This document shows, piece by piece, positions 13,896-37,467 of a stretch of DNA of 41,072 nt. A program made the position numbers and the translations under genes. This stretch comes from Patescibacteria group bacterium. GTDB lineage: Bacteria > Patescibacteriota > Microgenomatia > Levybacterales > UBA12049. The stretch lies in assembly GCA_023484045.1 (NCBI GenBank), contig JAMDAA010000007.1, forward strand, positions 1 through 41,072. The letters run 5' to 3'. The notes under the pieces were generated by a model. The model made no database searches. It was not told where the DNA came from and saw only the letters and a program-made list of their open reading frames with translations. Every line of letters starts with the position of its first letter. Position 1 is the stretch's first letter.

Positions 13896-16613
13896 TTAAT
13901 TTGGATAATGACACTTCTTGTACTTCTTTCCACTTCCACACCAACACGGGTCATTGCGGCCGAGTTTGTGTTTTTGACCGGATTGATCATTTATTGATGA
14001 TCTATTGTTCACAACCGGCTTTTGTTTTTGCGGTTGATCATCCGACTCGCCCGCGGCTTTTGTAATAACATTCTTTGGAGCTTCAACATGCGGCGCTTGT
14101 TGGACTTGAATTTTGTAAATTCTATGGACTATTTCGTCGTCGATCGTACTAATTAATTGATCAAACATTTTAAATGCTTCATTTTTATATTCAACAAGCG
14201 GATCACGCTGACCATATCCCCGAAGACCAATTCCCTGTCGCAAATTTTCGATCGCGTCCAAATGGTCTGTCCACAAATTATCTATAACCGACAACATCAC
14301 AAACCGTTCAACCTCCCGCATTACTTCTTTTCCTAATTGTTCTTCGCGTTTTTCATAAATATCTTTTGCGATAGTCGTTAAAAATCCGATTCTACCTTCG
14401 ATACTCGACGTTTGTTCCATTTGTTTTGTGAGTTGAATTTGAGAATTTTGGTCAAAAGGAATAATTGTCGAGAATTCTTCTACGATCTTTTCTGGCAATG
14501 GTTCCTGGTTTTCTTGGATCGATTCCGCACTTTGAATATTAACTATGTTTGCGATCGAACCAGAAGCTTTTTCTAATATCTCATTTTTTAATACTGGATC
14601 TTTTTCATTTTCCCCGGCTTCGAGAATTTCTCTTCTATTTTTGTAAATAATTTCCCTTTGTTTGTTTAAAACATCATCGTATTCAACTAAATGTTTTCTG
14701 ATATCAAAATTAAATCCTTCGACTTTAACTTGGGCCTGTTCGATTGCGCGTGAAACAATTGGATGTTGCAAAGGTACGTCCTCGGGCATATTAAACCGCG
14801 TCATAAGCCCTGCGATTTTATCTCCGCCAAAAAGCCGCATAATCTCGTCGTCGAGTCCCACAAAAAATCGCGACTTTCCAGGATCTCCTTGTCTTCCCGA
14901 CCTTCCCCTAAGCTGGTTATCGATCCGCCGCGATTCATGACGCTCTGTTCCGATAACGTAAAGCCCACCAAGACTTTTTACTTCATTGTGTTTTTTCTCC
15001 CATTTCTTCCATTCCTCTGTTTCCCGTTTTTCTGTTCCGTCTTCAGATTTAGGACTGTCCCCACCTAAAATAATATCGACACCGCGTCCAGCCATGTTTG
15101 TCGCAACGGTTACGGCCCCTTTCTTTCCCGCCGCAGCGATAATCTCTGCCTCCCGAAGATGATTTTTAGCATTTAAAACTTCGTGTTTTATTCCGCGTCG
15201 TCTTAAAAGCTCAGAAATTATTTCATTTTTATTGATCGACGTAGTTCCGATTAACACAGGCTGGCCTTTTTTATACGCTTCTTCTATGTCGGAAGCAACA
15301 GCCGAAAGTTTCGCCCGCCCGGTTTTATAAATCGCATCCGATTCATCCTTTCTTATCATCGTCTTATTTGTCGGAATAACAACAACGTCGAGTTTATAAA
15401 TTTTATGGAATTCTTCTGCTTCTGTAACCGCAGTTCCGGTCATTCCCGCCAACTTTTCGTACATGCGGAAATAATTTTGCAGCGAAACTGTCGCCAAAGT
15501 TTTTGACTCGCGCTGAATCGTAACTCCTTCTTTTGCTTCGATCGCCTGATGAAGACCTTCGGAAAGTCTTCGCCCCTCCATAAGTCTTCCCGTAAATTCA
15601 TCCACTAAAATAACCTGATCGTCTTTAACGATATAATCTTTTTCTTTTGTGAACAAGGTCATCGCCTTAAGCGATGCCTCCAAATGATAGACTGTGTCAA
15701 AATCTTTTTCGTAAATGTTTTGGATCCCGTACATTTTTTCGATTTTTAAAATTCCGTGTTCTGTTAAATGCGCTGTTCTTAATTTTTCGTCGATTTTATA
15801 ATCAATATCCGGAGTAAGTTTTCTGACCAAATTTGCGTATTCAACATATTTTTGCGTCGGCTCTTCTTCCGGCGCAGAAATTATATGCGGAGTTCTTGCT
15901 TCATCGATTAACACCGAATCAACCTCATCGACGATCGCGTAATAAAACCCGCGCTGAACAACTTGAGAAATATTAGGCGCCATATTATCACGAAGGTAGT
16001 CAAAACCGAATTCCGAATTTATTCCGTAAACAATATCTGCTTTATACGCTTCTTTCCGCGTAATCGGTCTTAAATGCAAAAGCCTAAAATCCCAAGCGCT
16101 TTTTTCTTTATGATTCGGGTCGAATAAAAACGATTGCTCACTGATAATCGAAGAAACCGAAACACCGAGTAAATTAAAAACCTGTCCCATCCAACCAGCA
16201 TCCCTTCTTGCCAAATAATCATTGACAGTAACCAGGTGGACACTTTTTCCGGTTAAACTGTTTAAGTAAAGTGCGGGGACAGCAGATAAAGTTTTTCCTT
16301 CTCCAGTTTTTTGCTCGACGATTTTTCCGTTCGCCAATGTTATACCAGCCATTAATTGAACGTCAAAATGGCGTTGACCTATTGTTCTTCTTGCGGCTTC
16401 GCGAGCAAGGGCGAATGCCTCGGGCAAAATTAAATCCAAAGATTCCCCGTTTTTTATCCTTTCTTTAAGCTCTAAGGTTTTTTTCGAAAAATCTTTGTCT
16501 TTAAATTTTTTTATTTTTTCCTCAAAAGAATTTATTTCCAGAACAATCGGCTTAAGTTTTTGAATCTCTTTTTCATTAGAATCAAAAAACTTACTTATAA
16601 AGGGGAATTTCAT
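13896..16613 (-). CDS. secA: Preprotein translocase subunit SecA
   Basis: MAGITLANGKIVEQKTGEGKTLSAVPALYLNSL; VDEVDSVLIDEARTP; C-terminal zinc motif GRNDPCWCGSGKKYKKCH. Confidence 0.98.
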   Translation of the reverse strand: MKFPFISKFFDSNEKEIQKLKPIVLEINSFEEKIKKFKDKDFSKKTLELKERIKNGESLDLILPEAFALAREAARRTIGQRHFDVQLMAGITLANGKIVEQKTGEGKTLSAVPALYLNSLTGKSVHLVTVNDYLARRDAGWMGQVFNLLGVSVSSIISEQSFLFDPNHKEKSAWDFRLLHLRPITRKEAYKADIVYGINSEFGFDYLRDNMAPNISQVVQRGFYYAIVDEVDSVLIDEARTPHIISAPEEEPTQKYVEYANLVRKLTPDIDYKIDEKLRTAHLTEHGILKIEKMYGIQNIYEKDFDTVYHLEASLKAMTLFTKEKDYIVKDDQVILVDEFTGRLMEGRRLSEGLHQAIEAKEGVTIQRESKTLATVSLQNYFRMYEKLAGMTGTAVTEAEEFHKIYKLDVVVIPTNKTMIRKDESDAIYKTGRAKLSAVASDIEEAYKKGQPVLIGTTSINKNEIISELLRRRGIKHEVLNAKNHLREAEIIAAAGKKGAVTVATNMAGRGVDIILGGDSPKSEDGTEKRETEEWKKWEKKHNEVKSLGGLYVIGTERHESRRIDNQLRGRSGRQGDPGKSRFFVGLDDEIMRLFGGDKIAGLMTRFNMPEDVPLQHPIVSRAIEQAQVKVEGFNFDIRKHLVEYDDVLNKQREIIYKNRREILEAGENEKDPVLKNEILEKASGSIANIVNIQSAESIQENQEPLPEKIVEEFSTIIPFDQNSQIQLTKQMEQTSSIEGRIGFLTTIAKDIYEKREEQLGKEVMREVERFVMLSVIDNLWTDHLDAIENLRQGIGLRGYGQRDPLVEYKNEAFKMFDQLISTIDDEIVHRIYKIQVQQAPHVEAPKNVITKAAGESDDQPQKQKPVVNNRSSINDQSGQKHKLGRNDPCWCGSGKKYKKCHYPN

Positions 16614-16646
16614 CCCTTAATTTTACCATAATTCTCTCTTTAAAAA

Positions 16647-16676
16647 AATCCCGCACCATAATATTGGTGCGGGATT
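16647..16676 (-). terminator. Intrinsic terminator between the MAKKKKKKKR ORF and secA
   Basis: Reverse strand AATCCCGCACC-AATATTAT-GGTGCGGGATTTTTTT. Confidence 0.9.
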
Positions 16677-16714
16677 ACCAACTGATCAATTGGTAAGCTT
16701 TACGCTTTACCAAC

Positions 16715-16747
16715 CTATCTCTTCTTCTTCTTTTTTTTCTTTGCCAT
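16715..16747 (-). CDS. Decapeptide mini-ORF MAKKKKKKKR
   Basis: ATG GCA AAG AAA AAA AAG AAG AAG AAG AGA TAG, preceded by AAAGGGGGTGATC Shine-Dalgarno; terminator follows. Confidence 0.6.
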   Translation of the reverse strand: MAKKKKKKKR

Positions 16748-17066
16748 TTTGACGATCACCCCCTTTTTCTTTAACCAAGCCCTCGGCAGCGGAGGAATCC
16801 CCGAACAGCAAAAGGCAGTTTCTTAATAAGAAATAATTTCTTTATTAAGCAGGCAGGTTAATTAAATTAATCGTGAAATATTTTTATTGATTTGTCAAGA
16901 TTTTTTCATTGCTTCAAAGTAATATATTTAGATTGACAATACAATAAAAATCATAAACATATTTTTTTATTTTTTAATTGCATTTTGAGGCTAAAATTTT
17001 ATAAAAATCCGAAGCTAAAATTTAAAAATTTTTGATATTTTTTAAATAAAAGAATAAAATAATGTC

Positions 17067-17681
17067 ATGGATTTATTAAAGAAAGAAGAAGAATTGCAAA
17101 AAGGGGCAAGAAAGGTTCTGGAAAAATTAGATTTAATAGAATTATTGTCTAAGCATGGAAAGCCAAAAATTGTAGGAAGTGTTGCGTTTAGACTAATGAC
17201 TTGGAAGGACATAGACATAGTGGTCATAGTTGATAAACTTAATAAGCAAAACATAGCCGAAATATCTGCGATTTTAATAAAGAAATCTTCCAGAAGAATC
17301 GATTTTACAGTTACTGACAACAGAAAAGAAGATGGTTTAGGAAAAATACCTAGAGGAATATATTTAGGATTGAAATATTTTGGCGATGATATAAAGGATG
17401 TTTCACGATATGAAGCCGTTAAAGACATTGTTTGGAAAATCGACATTCACTTTGTATTAAAAGACTCGTCTAGAAGCATAGCAACAATAGAAAAAATAAA
17501 ATCTCAATTAACAGAAGAAAAAAGATTAATAATACTACAAATAAAAGAAGCGCTAATAAAAAATAAGAAATATAAGATTGAGATTTTTAGCATAGACGTT
17601 TACAAAGCAGTTTTGGAAAAAGGAGTTAAAAATCTAGAAGAATTTAAGGAATATTTAAAAAGTGTCGGAAAAAATCTTTAA
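17067..17681 (+). CDS. Nucleotidyltransferase-fold hypothetical protein
   Basis: VGSVAFRLMTWKDIDIVV resembles the GS-x-DxD motif of polymerase-beta-like NTases. Confidence 0.6.
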   Translation: MDLLKKEEELQKGARKVLEKLDLIELLSKHGKPKIVGSVAFRLMTWKDIDIVVIVDKLNKQNIAEISAILIKKSSRRIDFTVTDNRKEDGLGKIPRGIYLGLKYFGDDIKDVSRYEAVKDIVWKIDIHFVLKDSSRSIATIEKIKSQLTEEKRLIILQIKEALIKNKKYKIEIFSIDVYKAVLEKGVKNLEEFKEYLKSVGKNL

Positions 17682-17701: not shown

Positions 17702-18976
17702 TTATCTATTAGGAATTATTTTCTCTTTTCCTAAATATTTTTTTAAAACTTCCGGAATAATTATAGACCCATCTTCTTGTTGATAATTTTCTAAAATCGC
17801 GATTAGAATTCTTGGAGAAGCAATCACGGTATTATTCAAAGTATAGCAGTAATTAACATCTCCTTTCTTATTCTTAAATTTCATATTAAGTCGACGCGCT
17901 TGCCAATCGGTTAAATTGGAATTTGAGTGAGTTTCTCCATAATTATTTCTTGCCGGCATCCATGTTTCAATATCATACATTTTATATTTTCCTGCTCCCA
18001 TATCGCCAGTTGAATTTTGAATAACATGATAGGGCAACCCAAGCTCTTGCAGAATATTTTCAGAAATAGACTGCATAAGCCTAAAAAGCTCTTCGGATTC
18101 TTCTAATTTATTTTTACAAATTACTACCTGTTCAACTTTAGTAAATTCATGAACTCTATACAAACCGCGAACATCTTTACCATAGTCTCCGACCTCCGAT
18201 CGATAACATTGAGTCAAGGCACATACTTTAATTGGTAAATCTTTTTCGTTCAGCACCTTGTCAGAAAAGTATGCCAAAAGAGACGGCTCTGAAGTCCCGG
18301 CTAAAAATGTTGGAGTTTTAATTTCGTCACCGCTTTCTAGCTTTCCTGGGTTAGCCAGCTGGTAAACATCTTGTTTTCCAAATGGAAAATGGCCGCTACC
18401 AACTAGAGCAAATTCATGAAGTAACGTAGGCGGAACCATCGGTACAAATCCGTTAGAAGTTATTTTCTCCAATGCAAAATTTAAAACAGCCCAATGAAGA
18501 AGCGCTCCTTCATTCTTCAAATAATAGCCGCGGAATCCGGAAGTCTTAGTTCCGGCAGACAAATCAACTATGTCCAAATTCTTGCCTAATTCTATGTGAT
18601 CTTTAATAGGAAAATTAAACTTTGGAATTTCTCCCCACTTAAAAATTTCTTTATTAGACTTGCTGTCCGGACCAACAGGAGTATCAGGAGTAGGAATATT
18701 GGGAGTGATTAGCATTAAATAATTAAACTTATCTTCTACTAATTTTAATTTATCTTCTAACCCACCCAATTCTTCTTTAATCCTTTTTCCTTTTTCGATA
18801 TTTTTTTCTCTTGCTACTTCATTCCTTTTTTGACGCAAACCTTGAACCTTTTCTCCAAGCTCTCGTCTCTCTTTATCGAGTTTTAATAACTCATTTACAT
18901 CAAGCTTAATTCCTTTATCTTCTACGGCTTTTTTTACAATCTCGGGATTTTCCCTTATAAATTTTATATCAATCAT
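17702..18976 (-). CDS. serS: Seryl-tRNA synthetase
   Basis: MIDIKFIRENPEIVKKAVEDKG; TPTFLAGTSEPSLLAYF; YRSEVGDYGKDVRGLYRVHEFTKVEQ; class II motifs. Confidence 0.97.
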   Translation of the reverse strand: MIDIKFIRENPEIVKKAVEDKGIKLDVNELLKLDKERRELGEKVQGLRQKRNEVAREKNIEKGKRIKEELGGLEDKLKLVEDKFNYLMLITPNIPTPDTPVGPDSKSNKEIFKWGEIPKFNFPIKDHIELGKNLDIVDLSAGTKTSGFRGYYLKNEGALLHWAVLNFALEKITSNGFVPMVPPTLLHEFALVGSGHFPFGKQDVYQLANPGKLESGDEIKTPTFLAGTSEPSLLAYFSDKVLNEKDLPIKVCALTQCYRSEVGDYGKDVRGLYRVHEFTKVEQVVICKNKLEESEELFRLMQSISENILQELGLPYHVIQNSTGDMGAGKYKMYDIETWMPARNNYGETHSNSNLTDWQARRLNMKFKNKKGDVNYCYTLNNTVIASPRILIAILENYQQEDGSIIIPEVLKKYLGKEKIIPNR

Positions 18977-33049: not shown

Positions 33050-33466
33050 ATGAATAAGACTATTTTATTTGCGGTCGTTATATTAGTAATAATTGGAGGG
33101 GGTATTCTTTTATTAACTAATAAATCGACAAAACAACAAAGTTCATCGCCGGCACAGAATACAATTAATCAATCGTTGCCAACCGATGCCCCGAAAAATC
33201 AAACTACAATAACCGTTAGTCAATCCGGATTTGGACCGAACACAATAACGGTTAAGATAGGAACTGTGGTTACATGGATAAATAAAAGCGGCAGTCCGGT
33301 CACTGTTAACTCAAATAATCATCCTACCCATTTACTGTATTCTCCGCTAAACTTGGGAGAATTTAACGATGGTTCATCGGTGCAGTTAACTTTTGATAAG
33401 CCGGGGACATACGGATATCACAATCACTTAAACCCGAGCCAAACAGGAACTGTGATTGTTAAATAA
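33050..33466 (+). CDS. Membrane-anchored cupredoxin-domain protein
   Basis: N-terminal TM; TITVKIGTVVTWINKSGSPVTVNSNNHPTH...FDKPGTYGYHNHLNPSQTGTVIV; strong SD GGGAGGGAGGTGAAAA-ATG. Confidence 0.85.
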   Translation: MNKTILFAVVILVIIGGGILLLTNKSTKQQSSSPAQNTINQSLPTDAPKNQTTITVSQSGFGPNTITVKIGTVVTWINKSGSPVTVNSNNHPTHLLYSPLNLGEFNDGSSVQLTFDKPGTYGYHNHLNPSQTGTVIVK

Positions 33467-36488: not shown

Positions 36489-36936
36489 AGTCTAGGAAGA
36501 AGACTGCTACTCCGCGGAGCTTTAGCGAAGTGGAGAGGAAAGTCCAGACAGGTGTAAAGCCGGGGATGGAGCGTAAGCTCCGACGCGTAAGCGCTAGTGT
36601 TCTGAATCCGAAAGGATGAAGAAACCCTGCGAGAATTGACTCAAAGGGAGAGCAACAGAAACGACCCTTCGACTACGCTCAGGGTTAAGTGAGAGCTTGG
36701 CCTGAGTATGCCGAAGGCTGAAACGGGCAATCCTACCTGCTGCAACTTCCGAACGGTGTTTGTCTCGCCGAAAGGCGGACGTAATGCGCTTTACCGAGCA
36801 CCAAAGTTCGAAGGCATTCTGGATAATTATCCAGAGCGGTAAATGACTAATAATCATAACCGAGATAGATTGCGGTAACCCGTCCCGCCGAAGGCGGACG
36901 AGGTTAACAGAATCTGGCTTACTCTCTTCCTAGACT
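36489..36936 (+). ncRNA. rnpB: RNase P RNA
   Basis: P1 arms AGTCTAGGAAGA/TCTTCCTAGACT; GAGGAAAGTCCAGAC; GCAACAGAAACGA; GGCTGAAACGGGCAATCC; ACAGAATCTGGCTTA; followed by T-run. Confidence 0.93.
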
Positions 36937-36960
36937 TTTTTGTGGATTTAATATCAAAAA

Positions 36961-37014: not shown

Positions 37015-37287
37015 TTATCTAACTATTTTCTTTAATGTTTTTCCGGCTGTAAAACCAGGAGCTTTTCTCGCTGCGATTGTAATTTTTTCTCCGGTTTTTG
37101 GATTTCTTCCCGGCCTTGCTGCTCTTTTTCTAACTGAAAAAGTGCCAAATCCTGTAATAACAACCTTTTCTCCACGTTTTAGAGAATCTCTGATCGCGTT
37201 AAGAAAAGCTTGCACTGACTCACGCGCTGCTTTGTTTGTAAGATTAGCTTTTTTGGCAACAAGGTCGATTAAATCTCTTTTAGTCAA
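37015..37287 (-). CDS. hup: HU-family DNA-binding protein (TTG start)
   Basis: MTKRDLIDLVAKKANLTNKAARESVQAFLNAIRDSLKRGEKVVITGFGTFSVRKRAARPGRNPKTGEKI; SD AAAGGGGGTGA upstream of TTG. Confidence 0.96.
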   Translation of the reverse strand: MTKRDLIDLVAKKANLTNKAARESVQAFLNAIRDSLKRGEKVVITGFGTFSVRKRAARPGRNPKTGEKITIAARKAPGFTAGKTLKKIVR

Positions 37288-37348
37288 GTATATTCACCCC
37301 CTTTCATTAGAAATTCTTAACGAATTTATGAGTTATAGAATTTCTTAT

Positions 37349-37419
37349 GTCCGCCTGAGAACGCTCCGTGAAGCGTGAACGAATAGTTCTGAAAAGCTAA
37401 ACGGTAAGTTCTGGCGGAC
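37349..37419 (-). repeat. Structured inverted-repeat element in the HU 5' leader
   Basis: GTCCGCC...GGCGGAC arms enclosing ACGCT...AGCGT hairpin and AGTTCT/AGAACT repeats. Confidence 0.6.
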
Positions 37420-37438
37420 TTACAACTTAATTAGGTTA

Positions 37439-37467
37439 AAAATACAATGAAAACATAACATTGTCAA
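37439..37467 (-). promoter_or_regulatory. hup promoter TTGACA-N17-TATTTT
   Basis: Reverse strand TTGACA (37462-37467), 17-nt spacer, TATTTT (37439-37444). Confidence 0.7.

What the first reader, a model, noticed from the sequence alone, without database searches (positions are those of the whole stretch)
16647..16898. Standalone transcription unit for a poly-lysine decapeptide MAKKKKKKKR
On the - strand: TTGACA (16893-16898), then a leader of roughly 130 nt, the strong SD AAAGGGGGTGATC, then ATG GCA AAG AAA AAA AAG AAG AAG AAG AGA TAG, then a strong intrinsic terminator (16647-16676). secA has its own -10 (TAAAAT-N6-ATG) after that terminator, so the unit appears autonomous. The SD core (AAAGGGGGTGA) is shared with the HU gene. 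A highly translated Lys7-Arg peptide could bind nucleic acid or ribosomes, neutralise polyanions, or act as a ribosome-stalling sensor; alternatively the RNA is the functional product. This is my strongest candidate for something undescribed, but the function is unknown.
Basis: partly seen in the sequence, partly recalled or inferred. Interest (0 to 1): 0.72.

Follow-up and report, generated by a model that had tools for sequence, protein, structure and literature searches.

The report
Conserved gene for a polylysine micro-protein
Levybacteria, tiny uncultured bacteria, carry a complete, strongly translated gene for a nine- or ten-residue peptide made almost only of lysine, conserved in about 60 relatives; it looks like the smallest form of a free-standing, histone-H1-tail-like polycation gene that annotation pipelines miss.

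Summary
Between serS and secA there is an autonomous minus-strand unit: a TTGACA promoter, the strongest Shine-Dalgarno of the 41 start sites scored in the window, ATG-MAKKKKKKKR-TAG, a hairpin and an intrinsic terminator; secA has its own extended -10 and starts leaderless. I found the unit upstream of secA in 62 distinct loci (Levybacteria order plus one other Microgenomatia family), with peptides of 9-38 aa built only from K, R, A, T, V, P, S and G, always at least 7 K+R and never acidic. Lysines use AAG 65% of the time against 19% in the neighbouring secA, and A-runs are halved, so selection is on clean translation of a basic peptide. Short pure-polylysine genes also occur away from secA in other families, and longer H1-like relatives (15-42 aa) with the same SD occur across Patescibacteria. 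A secA attenuator or stalling sensor is therefore unlikely. A conserved 3'-UTR hairpin with loop UGAUCA and a dedicated, nearly unique promoter show tight control. Best reading: an abundant polycationic micro-protein that binds nucleic acid. Target (DNA, rRNA or other polyanions) is not shown. New variant of a known kind.

The parts
16911..16935 (-). Upstream promoter element: CAATCTAAA (16935-16927) and TTTGAAGC (16918-16911), about 12 nt before the -35
   Evidence: Consensus over 62 loci TTTTT-N9-CAATCTAAA-N7-TTTTGAAGC; TGAAGCAA-N7..10-TTGACA occurs about once per genome
16893..16898 (-). -35 hexamer TTGACA
   Evidence: Read directly; conserved in nearly all 62 loci
16870..16875 (-). Likely -10 hexamer CACGAT, 17-nt spacer; start near 16863 (inferred)
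   Evidence: Conserved CAnnAT column block; weak match to consensus
16754..16766 (-). Extended Shine-Dalgarno AAAGGGGGTGATC
   Evidence: Duplex with 16S 3' end -22.0 kcal/mol, stronger than the 40 other scored window starts; relatives median -20.45
16715..16747 (-). Micro-ORF MAKKKKKKKR + TAG
   Evidence: 62 distinct loci, frame and charge conserved, AAG-biased
16677..16694 (-). 3'-UTR hairpin ACCAAUUGAUCAGUUGGU with GAUC loop
   Evidence: single site per genome in most; 53/62 tails; G.U changes on the sense strand
16707..16713 (-). Segment TTGGTAA directly after the stop codon; can pair with 16696-16690 and so compete with the hairpin
   Evidence: Folds; common but not universal (absent in L015, L016, L089, L099 and others)
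16647..16676 (-). Intrinsic terminator of the unit
   Evidence: terminator-like structure in 57 of 62 loci
16620..16628 (-). Extended -10 (TGGTAAAAT) of secA, 6 nt before its ATG: separate, leaderless secA transcript
   Evidence: TGnTAnnnT in 51 of 62 loci against 7 expected in shuffles
13896..16613 (-). secA (neighbour, not part of the unit)
   Evidence: PF07517, PF21090, PF07516, PF01043, PF02810

Best explanation
It is a complete, independently transcribed and very efficiently initiated gene whose product is a 10-residue oligolysine, the minimal form of a family of free-standing, histone-H1-tail-like polycationic micro-proteins (8-42 aa) found in Patescibacteria. The peptide would act by charge: made in quantity, it binds nucleic acid (nucleoid DNA and/or rRNA) without needing a fold, which is why length and order of residues drift while net charge, small spacer residues and absence of acidic residues are kept. 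A dedicated promoter with a TTTTGAAGC box and a 3'-UTR hairpin set its level. Shown: gene structure, conservation, frame and charge selection, codon choice against slippage, autonomy from secA (from sequence), wider family. Inferred: abundance, nucleic-acid binding, role of the hairpin and the promoter box.
For: 62 distinct loci keep SD-led ORFs of 9-38 aa made only of K485 R63 A106 T31 V12 P11 S10 G5, no acidic residue in 723 codons, K+R always >=7; other frames of the same DNA would give many Glu, Gln, Ser. AAG fraction 0.65 vs 0.19 in secA of the same loci, higher in 50 of 51 loci; longest A-run mean 6.0 vs 13.1 expected. SD -22.0 vs window median -3.45; HU, a nucleoid protein, has the same SD and a similar leader. 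Own promoter, terminator 57/62, secA's own -10 51/62. Pure polyK or near-pure genes away from secA: G669 MAKKKKKK after rpsI, G634 MPKKKKKK, G218 MARKKAKKKKR. Longer relatives with the same SD and MPAKKK/MPVKKK/MAAKKK starts: 31-42 aa in the class and 15-42 aa elsewhere in the phylum. One genus has both a 9-10-aa K-rich gene and a 31-35-aa H1-like gene.
Against: No expression, proteomic or binding data. A 10-mer oligolysine is short for cooperative DNA compaction and would be prone to proteolysis. The gene is absent upstream of secA in 8 order members, and most of these have no SD-led K-rich substitute under the pattern used, so it is dispensable. Strong conservation of the 3' hairpin and promoter shows that the RNA or its regulation matters too.
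Confidence: 0.6

Rival explanations
1. The peptide is a lineage-specific ribosomal micro-protein (works like mycobacterial bL37, bTHX or eukaryotic/archaeal eL41), seated in an rRNA pocket.
For: Tiny, basic, strongly translated; bL37 is a 24-aa protein in an rRNA pocket that was found only from cryo-EM density (PMC5876184); in G669 the gene follows rplM-rpsI.
Against: A pocket-bound protein should conserve sequence and length; here length runs 8-42 aa with no fixed residue pattern. Lost in several relatives.
Confidence: 0.17
2. Dual-function RNA: the transcript carries the peptide and also acts as, or is controlled through, an RNA element (UGAUCA hairpin competing with a segment masked by the ribosome at the stop codon).
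For: Hairpin in 53/62 tails with sense-strand wobble changes (T.G 27, G.T) and different stems but the same TGATCA centre in L018, L045, L164; unique site in most genomes; seg1 0-1 nt after the stop.
Against: Hairpin lacking in L152, L153, L156, L161 and the alternative pairing is not universal; no target known. The hairpin search was centred on GATC, so loop invariance is partly by construction.
Confidence: 0.15
3. A regulatory leader peptide of secA (ribosome stalling or attenuation, like SecM).
For: Conserved position before secA; poly-lysine can slow ribosomes (general knowledge).
Against: Terminator and separate leaderless secA promoter between them; no signal sequence or arrest motif; sequence drifts; AAG preferred and A-runs avoided; same gene far from secA in other families; spacing to secA varies (55-414 nt).
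Confidence: 0.05
4. Non-coding small RNA with an incidental purine-rich ORF, or a truncated longer gene (assembly error).
For: Leader and tail fold well (z -3.9).
Against: Charge, frame, ATG, SD and codon bias kept in 62 loci from independent assemblies; purine-rich RNA alone would give Glu and Gly codons. Leader length and sequence vary widely.
Confidence: 0.02

Closest known systems
Bacterial histone-H1-like lysine-rich proteins (Chlamydia Hc2/HctB; Pseudomonas AlgP and PhaF C-terminal domains; mycobacterial HupB tail)
   Same: Lys with Ala/Thr/Val/Pro/Ser spacers, no acidic or bulky residues, size varies; composition like the H1 C-terminal tail. AlgP tail peptides bind DNA (PMC9239181); Hc2 varies by numbers of Lys-rich pentamers (PMC2848022 abstract).
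   Different: Those are tails or repeats in 150-350-aa proteins; here the whole protein is 8-42 aa and, in the window, a pure oligolysine. No Pfam or NCBIfam match above cut-off for five of the longer relatives.
Lineage-specific ribosomal micro-proteins (bL37, bS22, bTHX, eL41)
   Same: Very small and basic, easily missed by annotation (PMC5876184).
   Different: They have defined, conserved sequences; this one conserves composition only.
SecM and other secretion-monitor leader peptides
   Same: Small ORF upstream of a Sec gene.
   Different: No signal sequence, no arrest motif, separate transcription units.
epsilon-Poly-L-lysine of Streptomyces
   Same: Oligolysine polycation.
   Different: That is made non-ribosomally with epsilon linkages and secreted (general knowledge).

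Membership tests
H1-like lysine-rich micro-protein (Hc2/AlgP-tail type composition) | Lys-rich with small spacer residues, no acidic or bulky residues | tested here: met
   723 codons in 62 peptides: only K, R, A, T, V, P, S, G
H1-like lysine-rich micro-protein (Hc2/AlgP-tail type composition) | Tandem short repeats such as KPAA or Lys-rich pentamers | tested here: not met
   Window peptide is a plain K7R; only the longer relatives look repeat-like
H1-like lysine-rich micro-protein (Hc2/AlgP-tail type composition) | Match to a curated family model | tested here: not met
   Five 32-42-aa relatives: no Pfam match above cut-off, no NCBIfam match; the decamer is too short to test
H1-like lysine-rich micro-protein (Hc2/AlgP-tail type composition) | Binds DNA | not testable with these tools
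   Needs purified peptide
SecM-type secretion monitor | N-terminal signal sequence and C-terminal arrest motif | tested here: not met
   All 62 peptides lack any hydrophobic stretch or conserved motif
SecM-type secretion monitor | Co-transcription with secA | tested here: not met
   Terminator-like structure in 57/62 and own secA -10 in 51/62; inferred from sequence, no transcript data
Ribosomal micro-protein (bL37/eL41 type) | Conserved sequence matching an rRNA pocket | tested here: not met
   Length 8-42 aa, composition-only conservation
Ribosomal micro-protein (bL37/eL41 type) | Present in purified ribosomes | not testable with these tools
   No proteomic data
Known structured RNA family (Rfam) | Score above gathering threshold | tested here: not met
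   No match at gathering; best E 0.34 in the relaxed search

The most novel reading that the evidence does not exclude
A ribosomally made oligolysine that takes over the bulk polycation job of polyamines in bacteria that have lost polyamine synthesis. The polyK gene sits at the junction upstream of secA where, in many other Microgenomatia, a spermidine-synthase-like gene lies. That domain (PF01564) is found in 9 of 82 genomes of this order against 89 of 187 in the class sample, and both genes occur side by side in G091 and G026. Caveats: these PF01564 proteins are short and may not be true spermidine synthases, and order members without the polyK gene lack PF01564 too.
Probability: 0.15. Interest if true: 0.85.

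Novelty: new variant of a known kind. Interest (0 to 1): 0.64.

Why it matters
It is a gene far below the usual annotation size limit that nevertheless passes strict comparative tests, so whole classes of Patescibacteria may hide an abundant polycation. It shows how far an H1-like protein can be reduced, to a bare run of lysines, and gives directly testable questions: does it coat the nucleoid or the ribosome, and does it stand in for polyamines in reduced genomes. It also offers a natural case of codon choice that lets ribosomes read polylysine without slipping.

Tried and rejected
Rfam at gathering and relaxed thresholds: nothing credible. secA leader or attenuator: rejected. DNA operator reading of the TACCAATTGATCARTTGGTA palindrome: disfavoured because the common variants break DNA symmetry but keep G.U pairs on the transcript strand, and spacing to the secA promoter varies. 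Leader hairpin hiding the SD: seen in the window fold, but leaders of relatives range from short to long, so not general. Strict promoter pattern with wrong spacing found little, corrected. Strict MA.KKKKK pattern across the phylum found only three genomes, all in this family; a looser pattern was needed. Polyamine-replacement test by PF01564: suggestive in distribution but not complementary within the order. Literature searches for lysine-rich small proteins or H1-like proteins in CPR gave nothing on this gene.

Full report
What was checked. The window is contig 13 of a 0.9-Mb genome; matching public contigs are nearly all named Candidatus Levybacteria or unnamed bacterium MAGs, i.e. Microgenomates / Patescibacteria. 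serS lies on the upstream side (17702-18976, PF02403 and PF00587) and secA on the downstream side.

Conservation. A DNA search in 40 relatives found the stretch from SD to terminator in many same-family genomes, and reading the loci showed a Lys-rich ORF before secA. SecA N-terminus searches over the order (82 genomes) and class (187) gave a set of upstream regions. After removing duplicates there are 105 regions; 61 were found automatically to have an SD-led K/R-rich micro-ORF, and L060 was added by eye, where the SD is weak, giving 62. One of them (L171, genome G091) belongs to another family of the class. Eight order members with enough upstream sequence lack it: L085, L092, L145-L148, L150, L151.

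Selection is on the peptide. The 62 peptides have 9-38 residues and, after Met, only K 485, A 106, R 63, T 31, V 12, P 11, S 10, G 5; none has an acidic, aromatic or large hydrophobic residue, and K+R is never below 7. If only a purine-rich RNA were kept, Glu and Gly codons should appear; they do not, apart from 5 GGA. Lys codons are AAG in 65% against 19% in secA of the same loci (50 of 51 loci higher, Fisher p about 3e-70, sequences not independent) and 15% in window genes; longest A-runs average 6.0 instead of 13.1 expected. This is what is expected if ribosomes must read the run without slipping, and the opposite of what a poly(A) stall would need.

Translation and transcription signals. 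Most genes in the window have no SD (median duplex energy -3.45 kcal/mol). The micro-ORF has -22.0, ahead of all 40 other scored starts; relatives have a median of -20.45. A cupredoxin-like gene (33050) has -21.4, and HU (37287-37015, not in the scored list) shows the same AAAGGGGGTGA. The promoter region aligns over the 62 loci to TTTTT-N9-CAATCTAAA-N7-TTTTGAAGC-N9/10-CTTGACAAA and a CAnnAT -10. TGAAGCAA-N7..10-TTGACA is nearly unique per genome, so the gene has its own control. A terminator-like structure follows in 57 of 62 and secA has TGnTAnnnT within 40 nt of its ATG in 51 of 62 (7.2 expected in shuffles). The two genes are therefore separate units, as inferred from sequence.

The 3' hairpin. 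ACCAAYTGATCARTTGGT occurs once in most genomes of the family and in this unit. In 53 of 62 tails a stem of at least 7 pairs surrounds GATC. Variants are T.G or G.T on the transcript strand, which keep RNA pairing but break DNA symmetry, and genus g25 (L018, L045) and L164 have other stems around the same TGATCA. A TTGGT segment right after the stop codon can pair with the left arm instead, so the ribosome at the stop codon could favour the hairpin; this is common but not universal. Its role, in mRNA stability, feedback or something else, is inferred only.

Wider family. A looser pattern (SD, M, K/R-rich, stop) over 374 class genomes finds short K-rich genes outside the order: G091 MAKKKKKKK with the same promoter box, G669 MAKKKKKK, G634 MPKKKKKK, G218 MARKKAKKKKR, G735 MAAKKKKKAGKKKKR. 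G735 and G091 are near secA, the other three are not. It also finds N-termini of longer H1-like proteins: 31-42 aa in the class and 15-42 aa elsewhere in the phylum, such as MPVKKKARKAAKKVVKKAKKTVKRKAKKATKRK. All share the SD and the MPAKKK / MPVKKK / MAAKKK-type start. The decapeptide is best seen as the short end of this series; common descent of all members cannot be proven with sequences of such low complexity, and is supported by promoter and position only for the Levybacteria order and G091 and, by position only, for G735.

Mechanism. I take the product to be an abundant polycation that binds nucleic acid by charge, like the H1-type tails of AlgP and Hc2 (PMC9239181; PMC2848022 abstract). 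A ribosomal micro-protein like bL37 (PMC5876184) is the main rival. Replacement of polyamines is the most novel reading: PF01564 is rare in this order (9/82) and found in 89 of 187 genomes of the class sample, and comparison of coordinates shows this domain just upstream of secA on the same strand in at least 28 class genomes; but order members without the polyK gene also lack the domain, so this stays a lead.

Novelty and limits. No paper found describes it, and no Rfam, Pfam or NCBIfam model applies. Statements on abundance, binding and regulation have no experimental support here. Genome-wide uniqueness rests on pattern searches of draft assemblies.

Noticed in passing
window 36492-36937 (+): Divergent RNase P RNA (RF00010, 44 bits, E 2e-12) well below the family's gathering score of 100, so it was missed by the default scan.
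   Followed up: partly
window 33050-33466 (+): Small cupredoxin-like protein (PF13473) with an SD almost as strong (-21.4 kcal/mol) as the polyK gene, while most genes of the window have none.
   Followed up: no
window 37015-37465 (-): HU gene with TTG start, strong SD, TTGACA promoter and a long structured leader, a layout similar to the polyK unit.
   Followed up: partly
class genomes G185, G226, G149, G088, G127, G143 and others, upstream of secA: A short spermidine-synthase-like protein (PF01564, about 210-230 aa) lies just upstream of secA in many Microgenomatia outside this order.
   Followed up: partly
L219 and L220: Genus g43 has a second, longer H1-like gene (35 and 31 aa) elsewhere in the genome besides the short K-rich one before secA.
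   Followed up: partly
L111, L132: Contigs labelled Nanoarchaeota and Bacteroidetes carry the Levybacteria hairpin pattern; L111 also carries the polyK unit and secA and looks misbinned.
   Followed up: partly
window 17042-17681: Two overlapping ORFs on opposite strands (134 and 204 aa) without a Pfam match sit between serS and the polyK unit in this genome, unlike in most relatives.
   Followed up: no
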